64,000 nucleotides of DNA from positions 64,368-128,367 of the forward strand of contig CALWHJ010000002.1 in NCBI GenBank assembly GCA_944380355.1. The letters are read 5' to 3'. The position numbers and the translations under genes were made by a program. This stretch comes from an uncultured Christensenellaceae bacterium (GTDB lineage: Bacteria > Bacillota > Clostridia > Christensenellales > UBA3700). The notes under the pieces were generated by a model that was not told the origin of the DNA, did no database searches, and worked only from the letters and a program-made list of their open reading frames with translations. The first letter of the stretch is position 1, and every line of letters starts with the position of its first letter. Shown one piece after another: positions 48,846 through 64,000 of this stretch.

Positions 48846-48917
48846 TTGACTATCACATAAATTTTTTATATAATAGTAACGATAGTTTTTAACTAAACGG
48901 CGTCGGCATTTTTTGCC
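48846..48917 (+). promoter_or_regulatory. ftsH promoter and hairpin beside the ribosome-binding site
   Basis: TTGACT (48846-48851), 17-bp spacer, TATAAT (48869-48874). A perfect hairpin TCGGCA-TTTTT-TGCCGA sits at 48903-48919 immediately before GGAGG and the GTG start; it could mask the ribosome-binding site by stacking but has no T-tract after it. Confidence 0.65.
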
Positions 48918-48931
48918 GAATGGAGGAAAAA

Positions 48932-51187
48932 GTGAACAAAAAAGCATTGATAGGCAGATACGTCGTGCTCGCGTTGAGCGTAGTACTTATAATCGTGCTC
49001 GTATACTTTATGTTTTTCAACAGCAAGCCTGTGGAAATCGCATACAGCAACGACGTCAGCGGCGACAATCAGGGTCTTATCCAGCGTATAGAAGCGGGCA
49101 ACATATCCGCACTTTATATCGAGTCCTACCGCGTTTACGCTCTCAAGGGCGACGCGTCGCAAAAGGAAATAGAGGCGTTTTACAACAACCCTACCAAGAA
49201 GGCTACCTACGTAGCCGCGATAGACTACCGCACGGACTTCAAAGAATATCTCGAAAAACTCAGAGATGAACAAGCAGGACCGGACGGAACGGGTACGGTT
49301 ACCGTGCCTCAGTACGTATTCAACGACCCCAACTCGGGAGTTAATCTCAGCTCTTTGATTTTCCCTATACTCGCGCTCATACTGTGTGCGATCGTGGTAT
49401 TCATAATCTTCAGACAAAACGCAAGTTCCAACCGTCAGGCTCTCAACTTCGGCAAGACCAAGGCGCGTTTGAATATGAATGTATCCGTAAGATTTACGGA
49501 TGTTGCGGGAGCTGAGGAAGAGAAAGAGGAACTCAAGGAAATCGTAGAATTCCTCAAAGACCCCAAGAAATTCCTTGCGCTCGGTGCAAGAATACCCAAG
49601 GGCGTTTTGCTCGTAGGCCCTCCCGGAACAGGTAAGACGCTGTTTGCCAAAGCGGTAGCGGGCGAATCCAACGTACCTTTCTTCTCTATAAGCGGTTCGG
49701 ACTTCGTGGAGATGTTCGTAGGTACGGGTGCTGCGAGAGTAAGAGACTTGTTTGACCAAGCCAAGAAAAATATGCCTTGTATCGTGTTTATCGACGAAAT
49801 AGACGCGGTGGGCAGACAGAGAGGTTCGGGCTTGGGCGGCGGACACGACGAAAGAGAGCAGACGCTCAACCAGTTGCTCGTTCAGATGGACGGCTTCGAG
49901 AAAAACGAAGGCATTATCATAATGGCAGCTACCAACAGAGCGGACATACTCGACCCCGCGCTTTTGAGACCGGGCAGATTTGACAGACAGATATACGTCA
50001 ACGTACCCGACGTTAAGGGCAGAGAGGAAATTCTCAAAGTACATTCGAGAAACAAACCTCTTGCCGACGACGTATCCTTCAAAATTCTTGCGAGAATGAC
50101 GAGCGGTTTCAGCGGTGCAGACCTCGAAAATCTGCTCAACGAGGCGGCTATTCTTGCGGCAAGAGCCAACAGAAAAGTCATCATTATGGAAGATATCCTC
50201 GAGGGTATCAACAAAGTTATTGCAGGACCTCAGAAGAAGAGCAGAGTAGTCACGGACAGCGACAAGAGAATTACCGCTTATCACGAGTCGGGACACGCGA
50301 TTATCGGCAAACTTTTGGAAAATTGCGACGACGTACAGGAAGTCAGTATTATCCCCAGAGGTATGGCGGCGGGCTATACTCTTACCCGTCCAGACAACGA
50401 CGACAGCCACGTTACGCGTAACAAGCTCATAGATATGATTACGATGATGCTCGGCGGAAGAGCGGCTGAAGAAATCGTAATTCACGATATATCCACAGGC
50501 GCGTCAAACGATATCGAAAGAGCAAGCAACATTGCCAAGAAGATGGTTACACAGTGGGGTATGTCCAAGGCGATAGGCAATATGTATCTCGGCGGCGACA
50601 AGGAAGTATTCCTCGGCAGAGATTACGGTACTACGCACTCTTACAGTGAGGATCTCGGCGGCATTATAGACAACGAAATCAAGAAAATTCTCGACGACTG
50701 CTACAAGAGAGCACTAGACATCTTGCAGAAAAACCGTAAGATAATGGATAATATGGTCAAGGTGCTTTTTGAGAAAGACACGATTTATACCGAGGAAGTC
50801 AATATGCTCTTTGACGGTAAGAGCGCCGAAGACGTAATTGCTTTCATCGACGAAAAACAGGCTAAGAAAGAGACCTACAAAAAGGACGCTTTCAAGAGCG
50901 AAAGCGTAAAGGTCAATATCGTGCCCGAAACGCCCGAGAGTCAAAAGCCCGAGAGCGAGGTAAGCGAAAAGACGCAAGAGGGCGCAGAGGACAATGCTTT
51001 TGAAAAATCTCAAGCAGTCGAAGAAAAGGTCGAAGAGAAGGCTGAAAAGCAAGAAGAAAAGCCTTCGACCGCTACGGTTGAAAAACGCGCTTCCGCTTCA
51101 AGAAAGACGACCTCGAGTGCGGCTAAAAAAACCGCAGGCAAGAAGACGTCGGACAGTGGCAAGAAAGAGGACGGAAAAGAAGAATAA
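48932..51187 (+). CDS. ftsH: ATP-dependent zinc metalloprotease FtsH
   Basis: A membrane AAA protease that degrades misfolded membrane and short-lived cytosolic proteins. Two transmembrane helices (about residues 8-28 and 140-160) flank the external domain. The AAA domain has Walker A GPPGTGKT (near 229), Walker [13 protein letters not shown] and the [22 protein letters not shown]; the zinc site is HESGH (near 450) with the third ligand further on. The start is GTG 48932, 6 bases after GGAGG; ATG 48920 overlaps the ribosome-binding site. The last about 120 residues form a Lys/Glu/Ala/Ser-rich tail ([20 protein letters not shown]) unusual for the family. Confidence 0.95.
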
Positions 51188-51202
51188 CTGTATAAGCTCA
51201 GA

Positions 51203-51231
51203 AAAAAAAGACGGGTTAGCCCGTCTTTTTT
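51203..51231 (+). terminator. Intrinsic terminator after ftsH
   Basis: AGACGGG/CCCGTCT stem with a four-base loop, flanked by A and T runs. Confidence 0.9.
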
Positions 51232-51317
51232 ATGTTCGAAAAAGTTGGGTTTTTTCTTATTGATTTTACGGAAAAGCAAAAAATTTGTACGATTAATAAG
51301 TGCCGCTTAAATGATTA

Positions 51318-51346
51318 TTTACAAAATACTTTATATATGATATAAT
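51318..51346 (+). promoter_or_regulatory. Promoter of the fucosidase gene
   Basis: TTTACA (51318-51323), 17-bp spacer, TATAAT (51341-51346), 45 bases before ATG 51391. Confidence 0.6.
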
Positions 51347-51390
51347 TAATTCATCAAATAAATTTTTATAAATTTTTCAGTAAGGGATTT

Positions 51391-52962
51391 ATGAGAAAAA
51401 AAGGATTGATTTATATTGCTGGGGTAACAGTTATGGCTATTTGTATACTCTTTTCAGGATGTAAGAATTACAATTATTACGAAGTACCCACAAAGACTTA
51501 TAAAGAGGGAGAAGAATTTCTCGAGGGTTGCGGCAATACCAACAACGGCTATGACAAAGAGAGCGAAGAGGTTGACAGACTTATAAGCGTTACGCCTTCG
51601 CAAAGACAGCTCGACTATATGGAAATGGAGTATTACAACTTCATTCACTTCGGTATGAATACTATGACGGGCAAAGAATGGGGCAAGGGCAACGAAGACC
51701 CTGCGAAGTTTAATCCCGAAAAACTCGATACCGACCAGTGGTGCGAGATACTCAAGGCGTCGGGCAGCAAAGGCGTTATAATCACGGCAAAACATCACGA
51801 CGGTTTTTGTCTGTGGCAGACGGAGACTACCGAGCACAGCATAAAAAACAGTCCTTATAAGGACGGCAACGGAGATATAGTCGGCGAGCTTGCAGCAAGC
51901 TGTAAAAAATACGGGCTTAAGATGGGTATATACCTTTCTCCCTGGGATATGAACGCAGAGTGTTACGGCACCAACGCGTACAACGATTTTTACAAAGCGC
52001 AGCTTACAGAACTTCTTGACGGAAGATACGGCGAGATATTCTGCGTATGGATGGACGGCGCGCTGGGAGAAGAGGCAGAACTCGACAAGGATTTTGCCTA
52101 CGACATAGAGGGCTATGAGGAGCTTATTCAGCAGTTGCAGCCTAATTGCATTACGGCTATACAGGGCAGCGACGTAAGATGGGTAGGCAACGAGGCAGGA
52201 ATTGCACGCGAGAGCGAATGGAGCGTAGTCAGCGTAAGCAACGCGGCGAGCGACAACTTCCAGACTAGCGAGGACGGCGCGGACGAGTTGCAGAAAGTCA
52301 GCGACGAGGACAGAGATTTGGGTAGCCGCGAGCTTTTGGAAAAATATCAGGATTTGGCGTGGAGACCTGCGGAAGTTGACGTAAGCATAAGAAAAGGTTG
52401 GTTCTATCACTGGAATCAAAGCCCCAAGAAGCTTGACCATCTCTTGCAGATTTACTATACGTCAGTAGGCGGCAACAGCAGTCTTTTGCTCAACGTACCG
52501 CCCAATAAAGACGGTTTGATTAGCAAGAAAGACGAAGAGGTGTTGAGGGCTTTCGGCAAGGCTATCGCCGACAGCAAGGCAAATCCCGTAGCGGTAGAAA
52601 GAATAGAAGTCGGCGACAATAATTCTACCGAGGCAAAGAGCGAGCTTAACGCACTTCTCAACAGCGAAAGAGACGGCTATACTTTCGAAGACGACGAATA
52701 CATTCTCGACTTCCATCTCAAAGAGAGCGTGAGTATAACGCGTTTCGACATCAGAGAAGACGTGAGATCTTCTCAGAGAGTAGAGGAATTCGAGGTGTGG
52801 ATAAAAGTCGGAGATAAATGGCAGATTATCGGCGACAGTACGGTAATAGGCAACAGACGCACTCTCGTATTCAAGGATTTGCCCAAGACAAATCTAGTAA
52901 GAATCACGATAAAGCAATCGCGCTCCGTACCCGTCATAAGAAGCGTTGAGTTGTACGCCTAA
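51391..52962 (+). CDS. GH29 alpha-L-fucosidase-like lipoprotein
   Basis: A 523-residue surface enzyme. A lipoprotein signal ends in LFSGC (Cys about 24). The GH29 barrel follows: NFIHFGMNTMTGKEWG, GVIITAKHHDGFCLWQT, GIYLSPWDMN, and the nucleophile region FCVWMDGALG (Asp near residue 221). A C-terminal F5/8-type or CBM32-like beta-sandwich (about residues 430-523) probably binds sugar. It removes terminal fucose from glycans, which fits a host-associated or mucin/plant-glycan niche. AGTAAGGG is the ribosome-binding site. A GH38-like gene follows on the same strand. Confidence 0.9.
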   Translation: MRKKGLIYIAGVTVMAICILFSGCKNYNYYEVPTKTYKEGEEFLEGCGNTNNGYDKESEEVDRLISVTPSQRQLDYMEMEYYNFIHFGMNTMTGKEWGKGNEDPAKFNPEKLDTDQWCEILKASGSKGVIITAKHHDGFCLWQTETTEHSIKNSPYKDGNGDIVGELAASCKKYGLKMGIYLSPWDMNAECYGTNAYNDFYKAQLTELLDGRYGEIFCVWMDGALGEEAELDKDFAYDIEGYEELIQQLQPNCITAIQGSDVRWVGNEAGIARESEWSVVSVSNAASDNFQTSEDGADELQKVSDEDRDLGSRELLEKYQDLAWRPAEVDVSIRKGWFYHWNQSPKKLDHLLQIYYTSVGGNSSLLLNVPPNKDGLISKKDEEVLRAFGKAIADSKANPVAVERIEVGDNNSTEAKSELNALLNSERDGYTFEDDEYILDFHLKESVSITRFDIREDVRSSQRVEEFEVWIKVGDKWQIIGDSTVIGNRRTLVFKDLPKTNLVRITIKQSRSVPVIRSVELYA

Positions 52963-53031
52963 TCTTACAAACGACATTGTACGACACGTTCGGGTTATGC
53001 TCGGCAGACACGTAATCTGAACCGATACTAT

Positions 53032-53056
53032 ATACCGCGTCTTACGGGCGCGGTAT
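53032..53056 (+). terminator. Hairpin terminator after the fucosidase gene
   Basis: ATACCGCG/CGCGGTAT stem (53032-53039 with 53049-53056) followed by AT-rich sequence with T5. Confidence 0.7.
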
Positions 53057-53075
53057 TAAATTTTTATTTCCCCTC

Positions 53076-53104
53076 TTGTATAAGGGGAGCATTTGTGATA
53101 AAAT
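53076..53104 (+). promoter_or_regulatory. Promoter of the GH38-like gene
   Basis: TTGTAT (53076-53081), 17-bp spacer, TAAAAT (53099-53104), 56 bases before ATG 53161. Confidence 0.55.
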
Positions 53105-53160
53105 GATTATACGGTCTTAAGGCATTATGCCCTGAGACTTGTTCAAAAGAAGGGAAGATT

Positions 53161-55860
53161 ATGGCAAAAACCGTTTACGTAGTTTCCAAAACTCATTTGG
53201 ACTTGGGATATACCAATCTCGCTGAGAGAGTGGTGGATAAGTATCTCGAAAAATATATCCCCAACGCTATTCAGATAGCAAAAGAAGTCAATACCGACGG
53301 CAAAAAATTCGTATGGACTCTCGGCTCGTGGCTTATAGACCGCGCATTGAGAGACGATGACGAAAAGAGAGGAAAAGAACTCGAAGAGGCTTGTATGAGA
53401 GGAGATATCGTCGCTCACGCAATGCCTTTTACCGTGCAGAGCGAGCTCGAGGACGTTACGCTTTTCGAAGACGGACTAAAGATTATCAAGGAGCTTGATA
53501 AGCGTTTCGGCAGAAATACGATAGCAGCAAAGATGACGGATGTCCCGGGGCATACAATCGGTATAGTCCCCCTACTTGCAAAGCACGGCATAAAGATGCT
53601 GCATATAGGCGTCAACCGCACGTCTGCAATGCCCGAAGTGCCTCCTATATTCGTGTGGGAGTGCGACGGCGCGCAAATAATCGTTGTCTACGAGGGCAGT
53701 TACGGCGGTACCGTAACTCATCCGGCGCTCGAAGAAGTGCTTGTGTTTGACCACTCTACGGACAACTGCGGACCTCGCGACGCAAAAACCGTACTCAAAA
53801 ATTTTGAAAAGATAAAGAAAAAGTACAAGGGCTATGAGGTAGTAGCGGGTACTATGGACGATTTTGCTCAAAAGCTTTGGGAGATAAAAGACCAATTGCC
53901 CGTGGTAAAGCGCGAGATAGGCGATACGTGGATACACGGCGTAAGCGCCGACCCTTACAAATACGGCGCGCTCAGAATGCTCGAGGATATGCGCAACGAG
54001 TGGGTAAGAAAAAAACAGCTTTCGCCTTCCGGCGAAGCTTACAGAGTGTTCACCGATAACTTGCTGTGCCTTGCAGAGCATACGGCGGGCAGAGGCATAC
54101 TCAACGCTTTCAGAGACTACGACAACTATTTGAAACCCGATTTTCTCGAGGCGCGCAAAGCCGACGCCAAGATACAGCGTTACGGAATTTTCCGCATACC
54201 TTTTCTCAGAGATTTTATGAAAAAGCGCGGCGGCAAGGGCAGATATACGCGTATGACCAAATCGTGGAACGAACAGCGAGATTACGTCATCAAGGCTATC
54301 GAAGCTTTGCCTTTGAAGCTTTATATCGAAGCGTTTACAAAACTCAAAGCTTTGCGCCCCGACGAGTGCTGTTATCCCGACGGCACGAGAGTTTTTCCCG
54401 ATACGCCTGTCAAATGCGGAAAATGGAAGTTGGAACTCAATTCTTTCGGCGCGCCTAAAAACCTCTTTATGGGCAACCGCGCTCTTATAGAGAATAACCA
54501 AGAGAGTATAGTCGACTACAAGAGTTTGGGACCTGCCGATTTTAAATTCTGGCTCAAGAATTATCACAGAAATCTATGCAAAACTTTTACGTGGGCTATA
54601 CCCGATTTTGCCCGTCCCAAATTGAAACGCGTGGCAAAGTATTATCCTCAGGGCAATTTCCCCTATACGATGAGCGAAGCGGTATACGATAAGACCAAGG
54701 AGTTTGAGAGAGTTACGGTCAGACTTGCAGGCAGAAAGCAGATTATGCCTCAGCTGGGAATGCCCAGAAAACTCACCGTGCAGTACATATTCTTTGAAAA
54801 CTATATGCAATTGCGTCTGGAATGGACGGACAAGGACGTAAGCAGGCTTCCCGAAGAGATATGGTTGCATCTGGGAATATCGCCCGACAGAGACAAGATA
54901 TTCTATCACAAGTTGGGACAAAAGCTTAGTCCCTACGAGATAGTGCCCAACGGCGGCCGCAATTTGTCCGTTACCGAAGGTATAGAATTCGACGTCGGAG
55001 GCAAGTCTTTCAGATTGCAGCCCAAACAGGCAGTACCCGTATCTTTAGGCAGAGGAAAACTTTTGCATTTCGACAACAAACTGGAAAACAGCAAGTACGG
55101 AATATCCTTCCTCGTTCAAAACAATATATGGGGTACAAACTATCCGCTGTGGTACGAGGATAACGCGGCGGTTTGGTTTGATTTAGCACCGGTAGAGGAG
55201 TACGAAAAAGGTATAAAAAGCTATGAGCCTAAGATACAGGTCAACGTAGTAAAGCTAAAGGCACTCGATGACAAAAAGTACATACTGACTGATGAAGAAA
55301 GAGCCGAATTCAACAAGGCTATGCGCAATGCCGTCAACAAAAAGCCTGCCGCACCTGCGACAGACGGCGCACTCGCCACGGCAGACGTAATAGAGGACGA
55401 TATTCCCGCAACCGATTCAGCAATTGAGAAAAAAGCTGCAAAGAGTACGTCGGACAAAACGGCGCTAAAGAAAAAGACTTCCAAACCCGCGTATTCGGGG
55501 CTGGGTATAGTCAAACCAATAATGGACAGAGCTACCGTGCTCAACGACGACTTGATAGAGCCTACGGACGACGATGACGACCCTCCCGCCCCCGTAAGCA
55601 GCATACGCACGGGAAGAATGGTTACTTTGGGCGCAAACTCTTCCTCAGAAATGGGAAAATTCTCCATTCAACCCAGAGCGGTTGCGAGAATAAATCTGGG
55701 AGACGAGCCTATAGAGGAGCCTACAGACGAGAAGGACGGAGAGGTCAAGTCGGTCAAAAAGAAAAGCGCGTCCGCTGCTTCGGCAAAGAGCGCGGCAAAA
55801 CCTGTAGCAAAGACTGGCAGCAAGTCTACGGCAAAACAAAGCAAAACCACTAAACAATAA
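53161..55860 (+). CDS. GH38-like hydrolase (DUF5054 type) with long Lys/Ala-rich tail
   Basis: An 899-residue protein. The N-terminus VVSKTHLDLGYTNLAERV has the H-x-D metal-binding pattern of alpha-mannosidase-like (GH38) catalytic domains, and MTDVPGHTIGIVPLLAKHGI, then WECDGAQIIVVYEGSYGG, continue the barrel; the layout fits the DUF5054 group, whose substrate is not settled. A beta-sandwich follows to about residue 715. The last about 170 residues are low-complexity, with repeats of SAKSAAKPVAKTGSK type and acidic patches. No signal peptide, so it should be cytoplasmic. AAGGGAAG precedes the ATG. Confidence 0.8.
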   Translation: MAKTVYVVSKTHLDLGYTNLAERVVDKYLEKYIPNAIQIAKEVNTDGKKFVWTLGSWLIDRALRDDDEKRGKELEEACMRGDIVAHAMPFTVQSELEDVTLFEDGLKIIKELDKRFGRNTIAAKMTDVPGHTIGIVPLLAKHGIKMLHIGVNRTSAMPEVPPIFVWECDGAQIIVVYEGSYGGTVTHPALEEVLVFDHSTDNCGPRDAKTVLKNFEKIKKKYKGYEVVAGTMDDFAQKLWEIKDQLPVVKREIGDTWIHGVSADPYKYGALRMLEDMRNEWVRKKQLSPSGEAYRVFTDNLLCLAEHTAGRGILNAFRDYDNYLKPDFLEARKADAKIQRYGIFRIPFLRDFMKKRGGKGRYTRMTKSWNEQRDYVIKAIEALPLKLYIEAFTKLKALRPDECCYPDGTRVFPDTPVKCGKWKLELNSFGAPKNLFMGNRALIENNQESIVDYKSLGPADFKFWLKNYHRNLCKTFTWAIPDFARPKLKRVAKYYPQGNFPYTMSEAVYDKTKEFERVTVRLAGRKQIMPQLGMPRKLTVQYIFFENYMQLRLEWTDKDVSRLPEEIWLHLGISPDRDKIFYHKLGQKLSPYEIVPNGGRNLSVTEGIEFDVGGKSFRLQPKQAVPVSLGRGKLLHFDNKLENSKYGISFLVQNNIWGTNYPLWYEDNAAVWFDLAPVEEYEKGIKSYEPKIQVNVVKLKALDDKKYILTDEERAEFNKAMRNAVNKKPAAPATDGALATADVIEDDIPATDSAIEKKAAKSTSDKTALKKKTSKPAYSGLGIVKPIMDRATVLNDDLIEPTDDDDDPPAPVSSIRTGRMVTLGANSSSEMGKFSIQPRAVARINLGDEPIEEPTDEKDGEVKSVKKKSASAASAKSAAKPVAKTGSKSTAKQSKTTKQ

Positions 55861-55870
55861 ATACTTAAAG

Positions 55871-55896
55871 GCGGTATGTTTTGTATACCGCTTTTT
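55871..55896 (+). terminator. Intrinsic terminator after the GH38-like gene
   Basis: GCGGTAT/ATACCGC stem with a seven-base loop and T5. Confidence 0.85.
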
Positions 55897-55898
55897 AG

Positions 55899-56186
55899 TT
55901 AAAGCGAGGCAGATATGAAATAAGCATACCTAAAGGATTCAGGATAGGGCACGCGCAGGACGAGCATACGGGAGTAACTGCGATTATATGCGAGAAAGGT
56001 TGCGTTGCGGGAGTCGACGTCAGAGGAGGCGCGCCGGGCACGAGAGAGACAGACCTTTTGAAAAGCGAAAAAGCCGCACAGCAGATACACGCGGTAGTGC
56101 TCACGGGCGGCTCGGCTTTCGGACTTGACAGCGCGGACTACGAATTCGAATACGATGACGAAGAGTTCGCCGATGACGGCGAATAG
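55899..56186 (+). pseudogene. Remnant of a P1-family (DmpA/S58) peptidase
   Basis: The frame 55899-56183 (stop 56184-56186) has no start codon yet reads IPKGFRIGHAQDEHTGVTAI, then GVDVRGGAPGTRETDLL and HAVVLTGGSAFGLDSA, the conserved N-terminal third of P1 aminopeptidase-like Ntn proteins. It then switches to an unrelated acidic run (EYDDEEFADDGE) and stops, so the catalytic Ser region and the rest are gone. It lies straight after a terminator and has no promoter. Clearly a truncated gene. Confidence 0.85.
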
Positions 56187-56266
56187 GCGTACGACATACG
56201 AAAATTTCCGCATTTTTGCCGAGAGAAAACAATTTGTCTTTCGGCAAAAATTTTTATACAAAATTT

Positions 56267-56296
56267 TGGACAAACAAAAAGCGTTTGGTATATAAT
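56267..56296 (+). promoter_or_regulatory. ddh promoter
   Basis: TGGACA (56267-56272), 18-bp spacer, TATAAT (56291-56296), 34 bases before ATG 56330. Confidence 0.7.
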
Positions 56297-56329
56297 ATAG
56301 AAAACTTATAAAAGGAAGGAGTACCGATA

Positions 56330-57313
56330 ATGATAAGAATAGGTATATTAGGTTACGGCAATCTCGGCAAGGGAGTAGAGAGCGCAATCGCACACAATCC
56401 CGATACCGCTTTGACGGCAATATTTACGAGAAGAAATCCCGAGAGCATTCAGCCTCTCACCAAGGGCGTACAGGTATATAAAGCCGACGATATCGCAAAA
56501 TACAAAGACGATATAGACGTACTCATACTCTGCGGCGGTTCTGCTACGGATTTGCCCGTACAGACTCCCGCTGTCGCAAAGTATTTCAACGTAATCGACA
56601 GTTTCGATACGCACGCAAACATCCCTCAGCATTTTTCCAATGTAGACAAAGCCGCTAAAGAAAACGGCAAGCTCGCGCTTATCAGCTGCGGTTGGGACCC
56701 CGGTATGTTCTCTCTCAACAGAGTTTACGCAGAGAGCGTTTTGCCGGGCGGCGCAACCTATACTTTCTGGGGCAAGGGCGTAAGTCAGGGACACTCCGAC
56801 GCTATCAGAAGAATTAAAGGCGTGGTTGACGCAAGACAGTATACCATACCCGTAGAGAGTGCGCTCGAAGCGGTAAGAAGCGGAAGCAACCCTTCGCTTA
56901 CCACAAGACAAAAGCACACCAGAGAGTGCTATGTAGTAGTAGAAGACGGTGCGGACAAGGCGTCTATCGAGAAACAAATCAAAGAGATGCCCAACTATTT
57001 TGCTGACTATGACACTACCGTCAACTTCATATCTTTGGAGGAGCTCAAGGCAAAGCACAACGGCATACCTCACGGAGGTTTTGTAATCAGAAGCGGACAG
57101 ACGGGAGCGAGCGACGAATACAGCAACGTAATAGAGTATTCTCTCAAGCTCGATTCCAACCCCGCGTTTACCTCGTCCGTACTCGTTGCTTATGCGAGAG
57201 CGGTATACAGAATGAGCAAGGAGGGCAAGAGCGGATGCATAACCGTACTCGACGTCGCGCCCGCATATCTCTCGCCTCTCGACGGAGCGGAATTGAGAGC
57301 AAAGATGCTTTGA
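56330..57313 (+). CDS. ddh: meso-Diaminopimelate D-dehydrogenase
   Basis: Converts tetrahydrodipicolinate directly to meso-diaminopimelate with NADPH and ammonia. The Rossmann motif is GILGYGNLGKGVE (residues 5-17); FTRRNPE, DVLILCGGSATDLP, CGWDPGMFSLNRVY and KGVSQGHSDAIRRI are typical of Ddh. Length 327 is normal. AAGGAAGGAG precedes the ATG. It stands alone between a peptidase remnant and a terminator. The dapL gene at 25995 provides a second, different route to diaminopimelate. Confidence 0.95.
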   Translation: MIRIGILGYGNLGKGVESAIAHNPDTALTAIFTRRNPESIQPLTKGVQVYKADDIAKYKDDIDVLILCGGSATDLPVQTPAVAKYFNVIDSFDTHANIPQHFSNVDKAAKENGKLALISCGWDPGMFSLNRVYAESVLPGGATYTFWGKGVSQGHSDAIRRIKGVVDARQYTIPVESALEAVRSGSNPSLTTRQKHTRECYVVVEDGADKASIEKQIKEMPNYFADYDTTVNFISLEELKAKHNGIPHGGFVIRSGQTGASDEYSNVIEYSLKLDSNPAFTSSVLVAYARAVYRMSKEGKSGCITVLDVAPAYLSPLDGAELRAKML

Positions 57314-57343
57314 TTGTCTAACGATAAAGTTTTGACAAATCAA

Positions 57344-57373
57344 AATCCGCGTATTATCGTACGCGGATTTTTT
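57344..57373 (+). terminator. Intrinsic terminator after ddh
   Basis: AATCCGCGT/ACGCGGATT stem with an eight-base loop and T6. Confidence 0.9.
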
Positions 57374-57493
57374 CTGGCTTAGAAATCGATTTTTGTCAAA
57401 CGGATTTAGTTTTTACGTTTTGCGTTAGTATCGCGTATGCAAACCGAAAAACGCTTTTTTCATTTTAAACTAAAACTAAACTAAAATTGCGTA

Positions 57494-57671
57494 TTGCAAA
57501 TAAGCAGATTATATAGTATAATAAAAATAACGATAAAGAAAACGCGGTTTTCGCGCGGACGTTTTTAGTACGTCAACGTTATGAAATTATTACGTTAATT
57601 TTTTTTTACCGAGAAACTAATGACTTTTATCGGTAAAGTCAATCAACAGTTCGGATAAGGAAAGGAGAGAA
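57494..57671 (+). promoter_or_regulatory. Promoter and 150-base structured leader of the helicase gene
   Basis: TTGCAA (57494-57499), 17-bp spacer, TATAAT (57517-57522). The leader holds a GACGT/ACGTC hairpin near 57569-57586, an AACGT/ACGTT hairpin followed by nine T (about 57588-57617), and a TACCGA/TCGGTA stem (about 57607-57640) before GGAAAGGAG. The hairpin plus T-run looks like a weak attenuator. Confidence 0.5.
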
Positions 57672-60600
57672 ATGGCAGAAGAATTAGAAGAGCAGGTCAA
57701 TGAAGTAAGCGAAGTCAAGGAAAAGGCAAAGACCGAAAAGGCCGAGAAACCTCCCGTAGATAAAATGCCCGTGGAGATTACTCTCGAATGCGCGCCCGTA
57801 GTCAACTACTATCAGGTGCAAAACGGTATCAGTCCTATCCGCAGGCTTTACGTCAAAAACAGAAGCAACGAAGACAAGGAAAATCTTAAAGTGCGCGTTA
57901 CTTCTCAGCCCGACTTTATGTTGCCCTACGAGATAGAGCAGGCAATACTTCCCCGCCGCACAAACGCGAAATTCGATTGTCAGGCAAAGCTGTCTCCGCT
58001 GTTTATGGTTGCGGTGGACAAGACCTTGCAGGGCTTGATTACGGTAGAGGTACTCTTTGACGATGAGGTAGTTGCAAAACAAAGCTGCGAAGTGCAGATT
58101 ACCGCTTTCAACGAGTGTAACTACGAAGGAAGCCCCGAAAGTCTTGCTACGTTCGTAAAGCGTACTCCCCAGGTCAACCAGCTTATGTCGCTTATCGAGG
58201 CAAAGCTCAAAAAATGGAATTTGCCTTCGCAGAGCGGATATACCGCAAATACCAACAAAAACTACGTGCGCAATTACTTTGCCGCGGCATTCAGCGTACT
58301 CAACGACCAGCGTTTTGAGTACTACAAGTCGCAAGAGAGCAAGAGCGAAATGATACAAACGCACAAAGATTTGCTCGAAGGCAAAGTAGCTACGGCTACC
58401 GAGCTTGCGCTTTTATACGCTTCGTTGGTAGAAGCCAACGGACAAAACGCCGTCATAGGACACATAGGCGACGAATGGTACGTGGGCGTATTTACCACCA
58501 ACGAGTGTTTGCCTTTGCTCGTAAGCGACGACGTTGAGCTGATTGCTCAAAAAGCCGAAAAAGACGTCAACGAGTTCACTCTCGTGGCTATGTCGGATAC
58601 GGTCAGCGGCGTATCTTTCGAAAAGGCGGAGAAAAACGCTTTCAATGCAATAAAGAAAGACCCTGCCGTAGATTTTATAGTAGACATTAAGAGAGCGAGA
58701 ATAATGCATATCTATCCTTTGCCCGAGAGAGTGCTCGGCAAGGACGGATACGACCTCGTACAGAGCAGAGATTACATTACGTCGCTCGCGCCTAAGCAAT
58801 TCAAGGAATACGGCGGAGACGTCGGCGGCGAAAAGGAAATCAGCAGAGTAGCGCAATGGGAAAGACGACTTCTCGATATGGATATGAGAAACGCCCTTCT
58901 CAACTTCAAAGTTTCGCGCTCGGCAGTCAAACTTCTCGTGCCTACGCTTGACGATTTTATAGGCGCGATGAGCGAAAACAAAGCTTTTGTCGTCGACCCC
59001 AAACCCAGAGACGGAGCGACGAGTCTAGAGAAAATCACGGACGGTTTCGAGAGGTCTTCGTTCCTCAAGCCTTTCGTGGATTACGTAGGATACGAATACA
59101 AAAACAAACGACTTCTTACCGTATACGACCAGAAGTCGCACGAGGGAATAATGCTCAGACTGTTCAGAAAGGAGCAGTCCATACAAGAGGAGACGGGTAC
59201 CAGCACGCTTTATCTGGCGGTAGGTTTCCTGAAATGGAAAGAGAACGAAAACGCCGAAGAAAAGTACGCGCCTTTGCTGCTCTATCCCGTAAGTCTTAGC
59301 AAGAAGGGCGTAGCTTCTCCCGTATATACGCTTGACGTCAACGTCGAAGACGTGCGCCTTAACAGCACGCTGCTCGAATTTTTGTATCAGGAATTCAATC
59401 TGGACATCAGAGGACTTTCTTCCGTACAGCTCGATTCTCAGCAAAACATTCTCTCCGTAATAGCGAGAATAAAGAAAGAGACGGTAGGCTTTAAAGGTTG
59501 GGAAATTATGTCCAACGTATTTTTGGCTACGTTGTCTTTCGGCAACTATCAGCTGTGGTACGACGTCAAATACAAGTCCGAAAAATTCAAGGAACATCCT
59601 ATCGTCAATTCGCTTATCAACAACAAGCTCGAACTTCCCGAAGACGCCTTCAATCTGTCTGACAGTTCGAGTGACGAAGCGTACACGGCGGAAGACAGAA
59701 TGTATCTGCCTATATCGGCGGACTCTTCGCAGTACTCGGCTATCAAGGACAGCTTAAGCAAGAGTTTCGTATTGCACGGACCTCCGGGCACTGGTAAATC
59801 GCAGACGATTACCAACATTATCGCCAACAACATAGTACGCGGTAAGAGAGTATTGTTTGTGGCGGAAAAGATGGCGGCATTGTCTGTCGTTCATCACAGA
59901 TTGCAGAGCATCGGACTCGGTGACTTCTGTCTCGAACTTCATTCCAACAAGACCAATAAGAACACTGTTTTGTCGCAGATAGTCAACACTCTTTCGCTTG
60001 CTGAAAGCAGGCCTCAGGAACAGCTTGACGACGATAAACTTCAGGATATCAACGATTGCATAGACAAGCTGGAGAGAGAACTCGAGGCTATGCACCGCAA
60101 GAGATATCTGGGTATATCGCTCTATCAGGGCATAATGGGCTATTTTGAAAATCAGGATTCTCCCGACTGTTTGCGCATTGACAGCATATTCTACGAAAAA
60201 CTCGTAGGCTCGACTTTCAACAAGTATATAGACATACTTACCGAGCTTACTATGCGCGCCAAGGAGTGCGGAGATATAGAGAAATCGCCTTTCAGACACA
60301 TAGGCGGATTCAACTATTCCGAAAAGTGGAGTGAAGAGGGTAATTCCATACTCGAGATTTATCTGATGGAACTCAAGCATCTCAGGCAGTATGCGCGTAC
60401 TTTGATGCCTTTGTTCAATATGCGTACGGTCGCGCTCACTACGGCAAAACTCAAAGCGTTGTACAGAATATGCAAAGCTTTGCATATCGACTATATTCAG
60501 AATTATTTCAAGAGCCTTTCCAAACAGCCAAGAGGTATCGTTCAGTCCTACCTCGAGGCGGAGTCTCGCGTAGACACGATGCTCAACGAATATACCGCCA

Positions 60601-63380
60601 AGTACGGTACTTATCCTGAGGGCATTTCGTCCGAAGAACTTATCGCGACCTTGAAGAGCGGCTCTATAAGCAGTAAGATAAAGCGCGTCATACCTTCGGG
60701 TATCGACAAGCGCGACAGATGGGCTTACGTCGAATACCTCTCCAAGTGCGAGCAAATCCGCTCGACCTTGAGAAAGCGCGAAGAGGAACTTGCGGATATT
60801 CTGCAAATCTCTCCCGACGATTCGGCGAAAATCAAGCTTTGCACGACGGAAATCGACCAGCTTTACGAAAACGCGCAAAAGCTTTATGCCGAACTCAACA
60901 ACGAAGTATTCGAGGACAGCTGTTTCAGACTTGTAAAATTCGGTCCCAACGCGTTTATGCTGTATTATCAGTATGCGTACGAGAGCTGCGCGAAAGCAGA
61001 GGGCGCATTCTGCAAGATATTCAGCACACGCGGTTACAGCGGCGGCAACGATATCAACTCCAAGATAGAATATCTTACGAGCATACAAAAGAACTTCGAC
61101 TTTATCCCCAACTGGTGCAAGTATCAGGAAATCGTCGAAAAGTGTAAGGCAAGCGGTCTCGACTTTATTCTCGAGCCTCTCAATGACGGCGAGATATCGG
61201 CAGTCGAGGTTTTGAGCTGTTTCAAGAAGTGCGTATACTTCAACTTCGTAAGAAGCGAATTGCTCCTCGACGACGTACTATGTCAATTCTCAGGTCTTAC
61301 TCTCGAAGAGCTTGCCAACAAGTTCAAGGAGCTTACCGAGGACTACGAGAGATGGACGAAAGGCGAGCTTTACAACAAGCTGGTTGCAGGCATACCCCGT
61401 CCCGACGAAGAGGGCGACCACAATCTCGAAAGAGTTGTGCTTATGCGTGCGGAGAAGTCGGGTATGAAGGGCACAACGCTCAGAAATCTCTTTGCAAAGA
61501 TACCCAATATTCTTGCAAAGTGCTGTCCTTGTATGCTTATGAGTCCTACGTCCGTAACACAATTTTTGGACATAGACTCTGACAATAAGTTTGACCTTGT
61601 CATATTCGACGAAGCGTCGCAGTTGCCTACCTGTAAAGCGGTCGGCTGTATTGCGAGAGGTAAAAACGTTATCGTCGTAGGCGACCCTCAGCAGTTGCCT
61701 CCTACGACATTCTTCAACGTCGATTACAAGGACGACGAGCATTACGAAATCGAAGACCTCGACAGTATTCTCGACGACTGTCTCGCGCTCGGTATGCCTC
61801 AGAATCACCTCTTGTGGCACTACCGCTCCTTGCACGAAAGCCTTATCGCTTTCTCCAACGCAATGTACTACGGCAATACGCTGCTTACATTCCCTTCACC
61901 CAACGAGCTTAACAGCAAAGTATCCTTCAGATACGTTGACGGTGTGTATGAGAGAGGCGGAGCAAAACACAACAAGAAAGAGGGCGACGAGCTTGTCGAG
62001 GAAGTTATCAGACGTCTCAAAGACCCTCAGGAACGCAAGTACAGCATAGGTATCGTTACGTTCAATATGGCACAGCAAGTCTATATCGAAAACGAACTTT
62101 CCAAGCGTTTGCACGAGCATAAACTCGACCAGTACGCATACGACAGAGAAGAGCCTATTTTCGTCAAGAATCTCGAAAACGTACAAGGTGACGAAAGAGA
62201 CCTCATACTCTTCAGCGTAGGCTACGGTCCCGACAAAAACGGCAAACTCTCTCTGAACTTCGGTCCTATCAACCAGAACGGCGGTTACAAGCGTCTTAAC
62301 GTTGCCGTAACCAGAGCGCGCAACGAAATGATAGTATTCAGCGGTATTACGGGCAATATGATTGACCTCAACCGTACCAACAGCAAGGGCGTCGAGGGCT
62401 TGAAAGCATTCCTCGAATACGCAGAGCGCGGTAAGGATATGCTTGCGATAAGCAATATGGATATCGTAAGAAGAAGCGCGGGTATCAGTGAGCTTCTCGG
62501 CAAGGAACTCAAGGACAGAGGAATTCCCTGCGACTACAACGTAGGCGTCAGCGACTTCAAGATAGACGTAGCCGTAGTCGACCCCAAGAACAAGCACAAA
62601 TATATCCTTGCTATTCTTGCCGACAGCGAGAACTCCTGCAAGCTCAAGGGCGTAAGAGACAGGGTAATGATGCAGACCAAGATTTTGAGAAAGCTCGGTT
62701 GGAATACCTATCAGCTGTGGACTGTAAATTACTTCAACAACCCTAGACGCGAAATACAGAAAATCAAGGACTATATCGCTACCCTCACTCAAAAGAAGGT
62801 ACTCAGCAAGAAAGCAGTAAGAGACACTATCGCTAAGTACAGAGTACCTTACAAGGCATATCCTATCAAGCCTATGATGAGAGTAGGTACCGATTACGTG
62901 CTCGATATAGTCAACGAAGAAAGAATAAAAGAGAAGATAAGAGCCATTATCGAGAAGGAGTCACCTATCGAACTCCATTGCCTTATGGACAAGTTGACGT
63001 TTATGTTCAATCTGCCCAAGAGCGCAAAGAAAGCCATCGCAACCTTACAGGGTTACGTAGCAGAATTCGATACTTTCAAGAAAGAAGTAGCCGGCAAAGT
63101 CTTCTACGTAGACAAATCTGTCGATACCTTCCGTCCTTCCGACGCCAAGGTTAAGCGAGATATAGCTACTATCTATCCCGAAGAAATTCTTGCCGCAGTC
63201 AAGTGTGCTATCGAGAGTAATATAGGTCTTGACCGCGACGGAGTAATCAAAGAGGTAATAGCACTCTTTGCTTACGGAAAAAAGACAAAGACTGTCGTCG
63301 ACTGGATAGACAATGCGATAGACATTGCGATAGACGATAGGCAGTTGATGGTTACTGTGGACGGCAAGCTGTCCACTTAA
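57672..63380 (+). CDS. DUF4011/SF1 helicase/Vsr-like protein (Hhe-type defence candidate)
   Basis: A 1902-residue protein. Order: charged coil (1-35), beta-rich domain (about 36-145), a second N-terminal region, the DUF4011 motif QWERRLLDMDMRNALLNFKV (near 395), SF1 helicase with Walker A HGPPGTGKSQT (near 702), Walker B VIFDEASQLP (near 1310), GDPQQLPP (near 1336), NVQGDERDLILFS (near 1503) and RLNVAVTRARNE (near 1540), then a Vsr-like nuclease fold (YNVGVSDFKIDVAVVDP, near 1618) and a DUF3320-like C-terminus. DUF4011-helicase-Vsr proteins are reported anti-phage genes (hhe). Here the usual GIECDG active-site stretch reads AILADS, so the acidic Glu seems lost. GGAAAGGAG precedes the ATG. Confidence 0.88.
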   Translation: MAEELEEQVNEVSEVKEKAKTEKAEKPPVDKMPVEITLECAPVVNYYQVQNGISPIRRLYVKNRSNEDKENLKVRVTSQPDFMLPYEIEQAILPRRTNAKFDCQAKLSPLFMVAVDKTLQGLITVEVLFDDEVVAKQSCEVQITAFNECNYEGSPESLATFVKRTPQVNQLMSLIEAKLKKWNLPSQSGYTANTNKNYVRNYFAAAFSVLNDQRFEYYKSQESKSEMIQTHKDLLEGKVATATELALLYASLVEANGQNAVIGHIGDEWYVGVFTTNECLPLLVSDDVELIAQKAEKDVNEFTLVAMSDTVSGVSFEKAEKNAFNAIKKDPAVDFIVDIKRARIMHIYPLPERVLGKDGYDLVQSRDYITSLAPKQFKEYGGDVGGEKEISRVAQWERRLLDMDMRNALLNFKVSRSAVKLLVPTLDDFIGAMSENKAFVVDPKPRDGATSLEKITDGFERSSFLKPFVDYVGYEYKNKRLLTVYDQKSHEGIMLRLFRKEQSIQEETGTSTLYLAVGFLKWKENENAEEKYAPLLLYPVSLSKKGVASPVYTLDVNVEDVRLNSTLLEFLYQEFNLDIRGLSSVQLDSQQNILSVIARIKKETVGFKGWEIMSNVFLATLSFGNYQLWYDVKYKSEKFKEHPIVNSLINNKLELPEDAFNLSDSSSDEAYTAEDRMYLPISADSSQYSAIKDSLSKSFVLHGPPGTGKSQTITNIIANNIVRGKRVLFVAEKMAALSVVHHRLQSIGLGDFCLELHSNKTNKNTVLSQIVNTLSLAESRPQEQLDDDKLQDINDCIDKLERELEAMHRKRYLGISLYQGIMGYFENQDSPDCLRIDSIFYEKLVGSTFNKYIDILTELTMRAKECGDIEKSPFRHIGGFNYSEKWSEEGNSILEIYLMELKHLRQYARTLMPLFNMRTVALTTAKLKALYRICKALHIDYIQNYFKSLSKQPRGIVQSYLEAESRVDTMLNEYTAKYGTYPEGISSEELIATLKSGSISSKIKRVIPSGIDKRDRWAYVEYLSKCEQIRSTLRKREEELADILQISPDDSAKIKLCTTEIDQLYENAQKLYAELNNEVFEDSCFRLVKFGPNAFMLYYQYAYESCAKAEGAFCKIFSTRGYSGGNDINSKIEYLTSIQKNFDFIPNWCKYQEIVEKCKASGLDFILEPLNDGEISAVEVLSCFKKCVYFNFVRSELLLDDVLCQFSGLTLEELANKFKELTEDYERWTKGELYNKLVAGIPRPDEEGDHNLERVVLMRAEKSGMKGTTLRNLFAKIPNILAKCCPCMLMSPTSVTQFLDIDSDNKFDLVIFDEASQLPTCKAVGCIARGKNVIVVGDPQQLPPTTFFNVDYKDDEHYEIEDLDSILDDCLALGMPQNHLLWHYRSLHESLIAFSNAMYYGNTLLTFPSPNELNSKVSFRYVDGVYERGGAKHNKKEGDELVEEVIRRLKDPQERKYSIGIVTFNMAQQVYIENELSKRLHEHKLDQYAYDREEPIFVKNLENVQGDERDLILFSVGYGPDKNGKLSLNFGPINQNGGYKRLNVAVTRARNEMIVFSGITGNMIDLNRTNSKGVEGLKAFLEYAERGKDMLAISNMDIVRRSAGISELLGKELKDRGIPCDYNVGVSDFKIDVAVVDPKNKHKYILAILADSENSCKLKGVRDRVMMQTKILRKLGWNTYQLWTVNYFNNPRREIQKIKDYIATLTQKKVLSKKAVRDTIAKYRVPYKAYPIKPMMRVGTDYVLDIVNEERIKEKIRAIIEKESPIELHCLMDKLTFMFNLPKSAKKAIATLQGYVAEFDTFKKEVAGKVFYVDKSVDTFRPSDAKVKRDIATIYPEEILAAVKCAIESNIGLDRDGVIKEVIALFAYGKKTKTVVDWIDNAIDIAIDDRQLMVTVDGKLST

Positions 63381-63434
63381 GCGACCGCATATATCAGCAC
63401 ATCTTTTCCTTTTGTCAGCGGTGCGCCCGCCGCA

Positions 63435-63513
63435 GTTACGTACGACAAGTACGCGCCTTTGCGGGCGACCTCGAAAAAGAAAAATCTGCACCACTCTCCG
63501 TGCTCGCACGGGG
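63435..63513 (-). repeat. Second copy of the dispersed intergenic repeat
   Basis: Reverse complement of 63489-63513 matches 12799-12823 in 24 of 25 bases, and 63435-63454 matches 12862-12881 closely (GCGTACTTG-CGTACGT core). It lies in the 237-base gap after the helicase gene, in inverted orientation to the glnA-gltB copy. Confidence 0.75.
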
Positions 63514-63533
63514 TTAGGTAATAAAAGAATAAT

Positions 63534-63570
63534 AAAGCCACTCTCTATACTTATAGAGGGTGGCTTTTTT
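63534..63570 (+). terminator. Strong intrinsic terminator after the helicase gene
   Basis: 15-bp stem AAAGCCACTCTCTAT with ATAGAGGGTGGCTTT (one G-T pair), four-base loop, T-run. Confidence 0.9.
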
Positions 63571-63572
63571 AT

Positions 63573-63594
63573 AAAAAAGACCGCATTTGCGGTC
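63573..63594 (-). terminator. Terminator of the minus-strand HTH genes
   Basis: GACCGC/GCGGTC stem (63579-63584 with 63589-63594), followed on the minus strand by six T. Confidence 0.8.
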
Positions 63595-63617
63595 GCATAG
63601 TTTTTTAATATTATATA

Positions 63618-63830
63618 TCAATCTACATATCCTATAAGATAATTTACGTCGCTGTCCAATATTTTCGCCAATTTAATCAGCATATCCAGCGAACATTCTC
63701 TTTGCCCGTTTTCCCAATAGCCTACAAGCCTTACCGATATGTGCAATTCGTCGGCAAGAGCTTGACGCGTCATATTCTTTTCTTCGCGCAATTCTTTAAG
63801 CCTTGTATTGAATTTATTTTGGTTTTTCAT
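63618..63830 (-). CDS. XRE-family HTH regulator
   Basis: A 70-residue stand-alone Cro/C1-type HTH. LKELREEKNMTRQALADELH and SVRLVGYWENGQRECSLDML form the helix-turn-helix; it ends in LDSDVNYLIGYVD, a common dimer-helix ending. Its ATG lies 1 base after the stop of another HTH gene, so both are translated from one message. Possibly the regulator of an accessory element beyond the window edge. Confidence 0.85.
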   Translation of the reverse strand: MKNQNKFNTRLKELREEKNMTRQALADELHISVRLVGYWENGQRECSLDMLIKLAKILDSDVNYLIGYVD

Positions 63831-63831
63831 T

Positions 63832-64000
63832 TCAGTCTTGATAGCCTATCAGATAATCTACGCTTACGTCGAAAAATTTTGCAATATCCATAAGAATATC
63901 ATAGCTTGGTTGATTTCTGCCTATCTCCCAAGCGGAAACAGCCGACTTACACACGTTGACGGCTTTAGCTAAATCCTGTTGCGTCATATTGTTTACGGCG
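63832..64000 (-). CDS. XRE-family HTH regulator, 5' end outside the window
   Basis: The last 55 codons of a second HTH protein: MTQQDLAKAVNVCKSAVSAW, then EIGRNQPSYDILMDIAKFFD and VSVDYLIGYQD, then TGA at 63834-63832. It is closely similar in layout to the next gene (both end in YLIGY plus two residues), so the pair looks like a tandem duplication that has diverged. Confidence 0.8.
   Translation of the reverse strand, partial: AVNNMTQQDLAKAVNVCKSAVSAWEIGRNQPSYDILMDIAKFFDVSVDYLIGYQD

What the first reader, a model, noticed from the sequence alone, without database searches (positions are those of the whole stretch)
57672..63380. Large DUF4011-helicase-Vsr defence candidate with an apparently decayed nuclease site
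The domain order fits the single-gene anti-phage system reported as Hhe, but in the Vsr-like part the stretch usually reading GIECDG reads AILADS, with the acidic Glu replaced by Leu while the upstream Asp (KIDVAVVDP) is kept. The helicase motifs look intact. A helicase that has lost cleavage may work by translocation or by signalling, or may need a partner nuclease. The N-terminal 330 residues are not covered by a domain I know well.
Basis: partly seen in the sequence, partly recalled or inferred. Interest (0 to 1): 0.7.

Follow-up and report, generated by a model that had tools for sequence, protein, structure and literature searches.

The report
Anti-phage helicase turned core gene
A very large helicase gene in an uncultured gut bacterium descends from an anti-phage protein whose nuclease and protease-like active sites were both lost long ago; it is preserved by strong selection, sits among ordinary metabolic genes, and relatives are present in every sampled species of some genera, so it looks like a defence protein turned into a resident cell component rather than a decaying gene.

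Summary
In detail: window 57672-63380 is one intact 1902-aa ORF, and its Vsr-like domain reads KIDVAVVDP...AILADS, with Leu1649 where GIECDG relatives have Glu. The reading as a decayed Hhe nuclease is not supported. The protein belongs with NCBIfam ProA (1428 bits; cut-off 1500), not Hhe (658; cut-off 2000). The Glu loss is ancient: one change at the base of a 59-sequence ProA clade, always to Leu/Ile/Met/Val. The Vsr-like domain has the lowest dN/dS of the protein (about 0.01). In the query's Christensenellales clade it also turned strongly basic (+5.5 charges per 100 residues, against -1 to -2 in relatives); no other domain did. The uncovered N-terminus is an Ig-like sandwich plus a transglutaminase-like domain whose Cys and His are lost in all 53 clade members but present in all 13 nearest Glu-less relatives. 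SF1 helicase motifs are intact. The gene is not in a defence island; relatives occur in 61/61 and 61/61 sampled species of two genera, some directly before comEC-holA or after rnhB-yraN. Most likely it is an ATP-driven nucleic-acid translocase using a Vsr/RAP-like pseudonuclease as a binding clamp: a domesticated, doubly enzyme-dead ProA variant. No activity was tested.

The parts
57662..57669 (+). ribosome-binding site AAGGAGAG upstream of the ATG
   Evidence: sequence
57672..63380 (+). 1902-aa ProA-family DUF4011 / SF1 helicase / Vsr-like protein, single-gene unit
   Evidence: ORF; NCBIfam ProA 1428 bits over residues 45-1868; PADLOC PDC-S37 969 bits
57762..58112 (+). Ig-like beta-sandwich, residues 31-147
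   Evidence: AlphaFold2 model pLDDT 89; VIA-align Z up to 11.1 to Ig-like sandwiches of protein 4.2, transglutaminases and GH2 enzymes
58122..58706 (+). transglutaminase-like pseudo-domain, residues 151-345
   Evidence: relatives hit Transglut_core/DUF553 below cut-off with invariant Cys-His-Asp; model topology
58395..58397 (+). Ala242 in the transglutaminase Cys column (lost)
   Evidence: Cys 13/13 in nearest relatives, 0/53 in the query's clade
58473..58475 (+). Glu268 in the transglutaminase His column (lost)
58530..58532 (+). Asp287, third residue of the triad, kept
   Evidence: 53/53
58866..59384 (+). DUF4011
   Evidence: Pfam PF13195, E 3e-35
59721..60098 (+). SF1 helicase RecA1 with Walker A GPPGTGKS
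   Evidence: Pfam AAA_11
60132..61451 (+). long insert between the two helicase halves, residues 821-1260
   Evidence: no Pfam domain
61515..62339 (+). helicase Walker B (FDEAS), motif III and RecA2 (AAA_12)
   Evidence: Pfam; motif columns invariant in 90/90 for Asp1313, Glu1314, Gln1341, Arg1548
62469..62789 (+). Vsr/MTES_1575-like domain with remodelled site, residues 1600-1706
   Evidence: Pfam MTES_1575; [quoted passage not shown] VIA Z 8.8 to Vsr 1CW0; dN/dS about 0.01
62565..62567 (+). Asp1632, Vsr Asp51 equivalent, kept
   Evidence: 88/90 over the three groups
62616..62618 (+). Leu1649 in the Glu column
62622..62624 (+). Asp1651, invariant
   Evidence: 90/90
62874..63356 (+). C-terminal region, DUF3320-like, residues 1735-1895
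   Evidence: Pfam DUF3320 below cut-off at 1747-1781; homologues annotated DUF3320

Best explanation
It is a divergent, domesticated descendant of the anti-phage protein ProA. The working engine is an SF1 (UPF1/IGHMBP2-like) helicase that moves along DNA or RNA by ATP hydrolysis. The C-terminal Vsr-like domain no longer cuts: it has become a basic, highly conserved nucleic-acid-binding clamp, as RAP domains such as that of FASTKD4 have done. The N-terminal Ig-like plus dead transglutaminase-like module probably recruits partners or regulates the motor. It acts as one protein, with no partner nuclease gene beside it, and serves a resident function in nucleic-acid metabolism in Christensenellales. 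Shown: ancestry, loss pattern, intact helicase motifs, constraint, basic shift, core-gene distribution in some genera. Inferred: absence of cleavage, nucleic-acid binding, non-defence role.
For: Tree of 80 sequences on DUF4011 and helicase columns: Glu lost at the base of a 59-row ProA clade (SH-aLRT 99; 2 losses in all), transglutaminase Cys lost once at the base of a 42-row clade (95). Site table: Glu 24/24, then hydrophobic in 13/13 and 53/53; alpha-A Glu (Vsr Glu25) 24/24, 6/13, 2/53; Vsr Asp97 column Asp 24/24, 1/13, then Val/Asn/Thr; Cys and His 13/13 against 0/53 (Vsr mapping). dN/dS 0.010-0.011 in the Vsr-like domain against 0.033-0.035 for the whole gene. At matched helicase identity of 0.7 the Vsr-like domain is more alike in the query's clade (0.54 against 0.43) and the transglutaminase-like domain less alike (0.34 against 0.50). 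Vsr-like domain charge +5.5 per 100 residues against -1.2 and -2.1; no other domain shifts so. Present in 61/61 and 61/61 species sampled in two genera and 13/13 in another. In the window's own subclade it occurs together with a diaminopimelate dehydrogenase and a GNAT gene in all four genomes; operon-like with comEC-holA or rnhB-yraN elsewhere. No defence gene among the neighbours tested. Precedent: FASTKD4 Vsr-like domain binds RNA without cleavage (PMC11879112); inactivated PD-(D/E)XK domains kept for nucleic-acid binding in CoCoNuTs (PMC11090510).
Against: Two Asp residues (1632, 1651) are kept almost without exception, which a purely structural or binding domain need not do. Vsr itself works without a Glu at that strand-3 position (own knowledge of the Vsr sequence). 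In the query's own genus only 4 of 17 genomes carry it, so it is not universal. Core distribution does not exclude a constitutive anti-phage role. Nearly all genomes are metagenome-assembled and nothing was measured.
Confidence: 0.5

Rival explanations
1. It is still an anti-phage protein, acting by ATP-driven translocation, displacement or roadblock rather than cleavage, and is kept by nearly all species of some genera as constitutive immunity.
For: Family name and profile: ProA 1428 bits, PDC-S37 969 bits; the clade is nested within sequences above the ProA cut-off, and one of four clade members scored (L141, 1561) is itself above it. A DUF4011 gene is a core gene in P. aeruginosa, flanking a defence hotspot (PMC10250203).
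Against: No defence genes nearby, no viral or plasmid copies close to the query, genus-wide fixation, neighbours are comEC-holA, trmD-rnhB-yraN or metabolic genes.
Confidence: 0.25
2. The Vsr-like domain still cleaves nucleic acid with a rebuilt site made of Asp1632, Asp1651 and perhaps a nearby acid, as Vsr does without the usual Glu.
For: Asp1632 and Asp1651 almost invariant; strongest purifying selection of the protein falls on this domain; fold match to Vsr.
Against: Equivalents of Vsr Glu25, Asp97 and the His are also lost; one sister lineage lost Asp1632 too and keeps the gene (L162, L163); the domain has become basic.
Confidence: 0.15
3. It is the helicase half of a two-part system and relies on a separate nuclease encoded elsewhere.
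For: Dead nuclease domain with intact motor; general precedent of separate nuclease and helicase subunits in Hachiman (PMC12278908, abstract).
Against: No nuclease gene is conserved next to it across genera; RNase HII and YraN are neighbours only in one genus.
Confidence: 0.06
4. A decaying gene on its way to loss.
For: Two active sites have lost catalytic residues.
Against: 1902-codon open frame, dN/dS 0.03, and 0.01 in the domain said to be decayed; the same substitutions fixed across families.
Confidence: 0.02

Closest known systems
ProA anti-phage protein (NCBIfam NF058533; PADLOC candidate PDC-S37)
   Same: Full-length collinear match (residues 45-1868 to profile 1-1901), same domain order: Ig-like, transglutaminase-like, DUF4011, split SF1 helicase, Vsr-like, DUF3320-like C-terminus; the tree places the query inside the ProA clade.
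   Different: 1428 bits, under the curated cut-off of 1500; transglutaminase Cys and His lost; Vsr-like domain basic; core-gene distribution. The Glu loss is shared with many ProA proteins above the cut-off.
Hhe (NCBIfam NF042953, PADLOC Hhe)
   Same: DUF4011, SF1 helicase and Vsr/MTES_1575 domain in one protein.
   Different: 658 bits against a cut-off of 2000, best stretch only the C-terminal half.
RAP domains (FASTKD4, apicomplexan mitoribosome RAP proteins)
   Same: Vsr-like fold with altered site kept for RNA binding; VIA Z 8.1-9.5 and weak profile matches.
   Different: No helicase; eukaryotic organelle proteins; no shared ancestry beyond the fold shown.
Vsr endonuclease (1CW0) and endonuclease-like 3HRL
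   Same: Fold, Z 8.8 and 10.4; Asp51 equivalent kept.
   Different: Glu25, His and Asp97 equivalents lost in the query.
CoCoNuT type III-B CnuH (UPF1-like SF1 helicase fused to a Vsr-like domain)
   Same: SF1 helicase fused to a Vsr-like domain (PMC11090510).
   Different: Works with McrBC-type partners; no DUF4011 or transglutaminase-like part in the passages read.

Membership tests
ProA (NF058533) | score over the curated cut-off of 1500 bits | tested here: not met
   1428.4 bits; clade relatives 1412, 1449 and 1561
ProA (NF058533) | full-length collinear domain order | tested here: met
   profile 1-1901 of 1903 covered; alignments
ProA (NF058533) | phylogenetic position inside the ProA clade | tested here: met
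   nested among above-cut-off sequences such as L052, L054, L055, L056 and L104
ProA (NF058533) | transglutaminase-like Cys-His-Asp (as seen in 13/13 near relatives) | tested here: not met
   Ala242, Glu268, Asp287
ProA (NF058533) | anti-phage activity | not testable with these tools
   needs plaque assays; no paper on ProA was found in the library
Hhe (NF042953) | score over the curated cut-off of 2000 bits | tested here: not met
   658 bits
[quoted passage not shown]
   model; Z 10.4 to 3HRL, 8.8 to 1CW0; Pfam 64 bits
Vsr/MTES_1575 nuclease | catalytic set: alpha-A Glu, Asp, Glu-x-Asp, His, Asp97 equivalent | tested here: not met
   Ser1606, Asp1632, Leu1649/Asp1651, Cys1656, Val1665
SF1 helicase (UPF1/IGHMBP2-like) | motifs I, II, III, V, VI | tested here: met
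Transglutaminase-like enzyme | fold | tested here: inconclusive
   below-cut-off Pfam hits in intact relatives; consistent topology; the fold search was filled by the Ig-like part
Defence island gene | mobile or defence-gene neighbourhood | tested here: not met
RAP-like RNA-binding domain | binds nucleic acid without cleavage | not testable with these tools
   basic charge only

The most novel reading that the evidence does not exclude
An anti-phage effector was domesticated in Christensenellales into a core nucleic-acid translocase by losing two enzymatic sites in order (nuclease Glu first, transglutaminase Cys/His later) and turning the nuclease fold into a basic clamp, perhaps tied to DNA uptake or replication (operon-like link to comEC and holA in relatives).
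Probability: 0.35. Interest if true: 0.75.

Novelty: new variant of a known kind. Interest (0 to 1): 0.56.

Why it matters
If right, it is a traceable case of an immune protein becoming a resident cell component in bacteria, with intermediates still living: Glu-plus ProA, Glu-less ProA with an intact transglutaminase-like site, and the doubly dead core form. It gives a natural series for asking which activities of ProA are needed for phage defence, and warns that annotation by domain (nuclease, anti-phage) could mislead for many Christensenellales genomes.

Tried and rejected
Hhe as the family: rejected by score. Neutral decay: rejected by dN/dS and clade-wide fixation. Partner nuclease next door: no conserved candidate. 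Phage or plasmid mobility of the query type: viral contigs gave nothing, phages one distant record at 36%, plasmids only distant homologues, the best at 34%. Literature on ProA or PDC-S37: none found in the open library. Single-sequence PDB search of the Vsr-like domain: only chance matches; profile searches were needed. Fold search of the N-terminal model was filled by the Ig-like part, so the transglutaminase-like fold rests on weak Pfam hits, invariant Cys-His-Asp in relatives and topology.

Full report
Observation. The window holds one intact 1902-codon frame at 57672-63380 with a good ribosome-binding site. Pfam finds DUF4011, a split SF1 helicase and REase_MTES_1575, all above cut-off. 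The gene is present once in its genome, a 1.6 Mb genome whose nearest named relatives are uncultured Christensenellaceae.

Family. NCBIfam gives ProA 1428 bits over the whole protein (cut-off 1500) and Hhe only 658 bits (cut-off 2000); PADLOC gives PDC-S37 969 bits against Hhe 456. Other members of the query's clade score 1412, 1449 and 1561 for ProA; intact relatives of full length score 2079-2298. In a tree of 80 sequences built only on DUF4011 and helicase columns, the query's clade is nested within ProA. I therefore call it a ProA-derived protein and not an equivalog.

History of the nuclease site. Glu is present in 24 of 24 sequences of the outer groups, and replaced by Leu, Ile, Met or Val in 13 of 13 ProA proteins with an intact transglutaminase-like triad and in 53 of 53 of the query's clade. 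Parsimony needs two losses, one at the base of the 59-row clade (support 99) and one in an Acinetobacter plasmid form (L085). Sequence alignment of the Glu-plus profile to Vsr 1CW0 maps the alpha-A Glu, the KID Asp and the second Asp of RDRD to the Vsr stretches that hold Glu25, Asp51 and Asp97 (the residue roles are my own knowledge, and the Asp51-His69 pair is described in PMC11879112). Of these, only the KID Asp remains in the query; the His is lost too. Asp1651 is invariant in all three groups.

Not decay. Between the query and its 94% and 91% relatives, dN/dS is 0.033-0.035 for the gene and 0.010-0.011 for the Vsr-like domain, the lowest of all segments (dS is near saturation, so the values are rough). 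At matched helicase identity this domain is more conserved in the query's clade than in the Glu-less proteins outside it, while the transglutaminase-like domain is less conserved (sequence pairs are not independent). The domain's net charge moved from -2.1 and -1.2 to +5.5 per 100 residues; the other domains moved by no more than about 2 from the Glu-less sister group.

Fold. [quoted passage not shown] VIA-align gives Z 10.4 to 3HRL, 9.8 to I-Bth0305I, 9.5 to a mitoribosomal protein of the Toxoplasma large subunit, 8.8 to Vsr 1CW0 and 8.1 to FASTKD4; Foldseek itself had no match below E 0.001. FASTKD4 is a solved example of a Vsr-like domain that is reported to bind RNA without cleavage (PMC11879112).

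N-terminus. Residues 31-147 model as an Ig-like sandwich (Z up to 11.1). Residues 151-345 are transglutaminase-like: intact relatives have invariant Cys, His and Asp and weak hits to Transglut_core and DUF553; in the model the Cys column is the first residue of a helix and the His column the first of a strand. In the query's clade Cys and His are gone in 53 of 53 (one row keeps a His by the alignment of the smaller tree set, L099, but not the Cys) while Asp stays in 53 of 53. The Cys loss maps to one branch.

Genomic setting. The neighbours in the window are diaminopimelate dehydrogenase, a DUF5054 protein, alpha-L-fucosidase, then (beyond the window) an LRR protein, a GNAT protein and citrate synthase; none hits a defence model (citrate synthase and the rest). 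In the genus, the four genomes that have the gene also share the dehydrogenase and a close GNAT gene, and no others have that dehydrogenase. In a sister family the gene was found in 61 of 61 species in each of two genera (two of the second set are fragments that cannot be told with certainty from the shorter paralogue), and 13 of 13 in genus g5. There it lies 3 to 21 bases before comEC, followed by holA, in several genomes of g276 and g584 (with larger gaps or other neighbours in some), or shortly after rnhB-yraN and before trkH in g278 (yraN by sequence resemblance only). This is the behaviour of a core gene. It is not proof against a constitutive immune role.

Conclusion. Shown: ancestry, order of losses, constraint, basic shift, intact helicase motifs, core-like distribution in several genera. 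Inferred: no cleavage, nucleic-acid clamp, resident role. The best single reading is a domesticated ProA pseudoenzyme with a working motor.

Noticed in passing
window 63621-63830 (-) and beyond: Small Cro/C1-type helix-turn-helix gene(s) on the minus strand just downstream; similar small ORFs occur in this position in close relatives.
   Followed up: no
L085 (Acinetobacter plasmid pOXA58_005078) 456-5609: Independent loss of the same Glu (GIIVDG) in a ProA protein with an intact transglutaminase-like triad, next to a site-specific integrase on a plasmid; many Acinetobacter plasmids carry a homologue.
   Followed up: partly
L162 and L163 (family f229): A Christensenellales lineage that has also lost the KID Asp (Asn, Ser), the most complete loss of the nuclease site seen.
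   Followed up: partly
L023-L029 (genus g1): Genomes of the same genus without the query-type gene often carry a different DUF4011 protein of about 1520 aa with an intact ECDG-type site.
   Followed up: partly
L169, L171-L173, L181: Operon-like order ProA-derived gene, comEC, holA in a sister family, with a UvrD-like helicase of about 790 aa upstream in several.
   Followed up: partly
window 48893-64000: Many long antisense ORFs (up to 530 aa) opposite real genes, probably a codon-usage effect and not genes.
   Followed up: no
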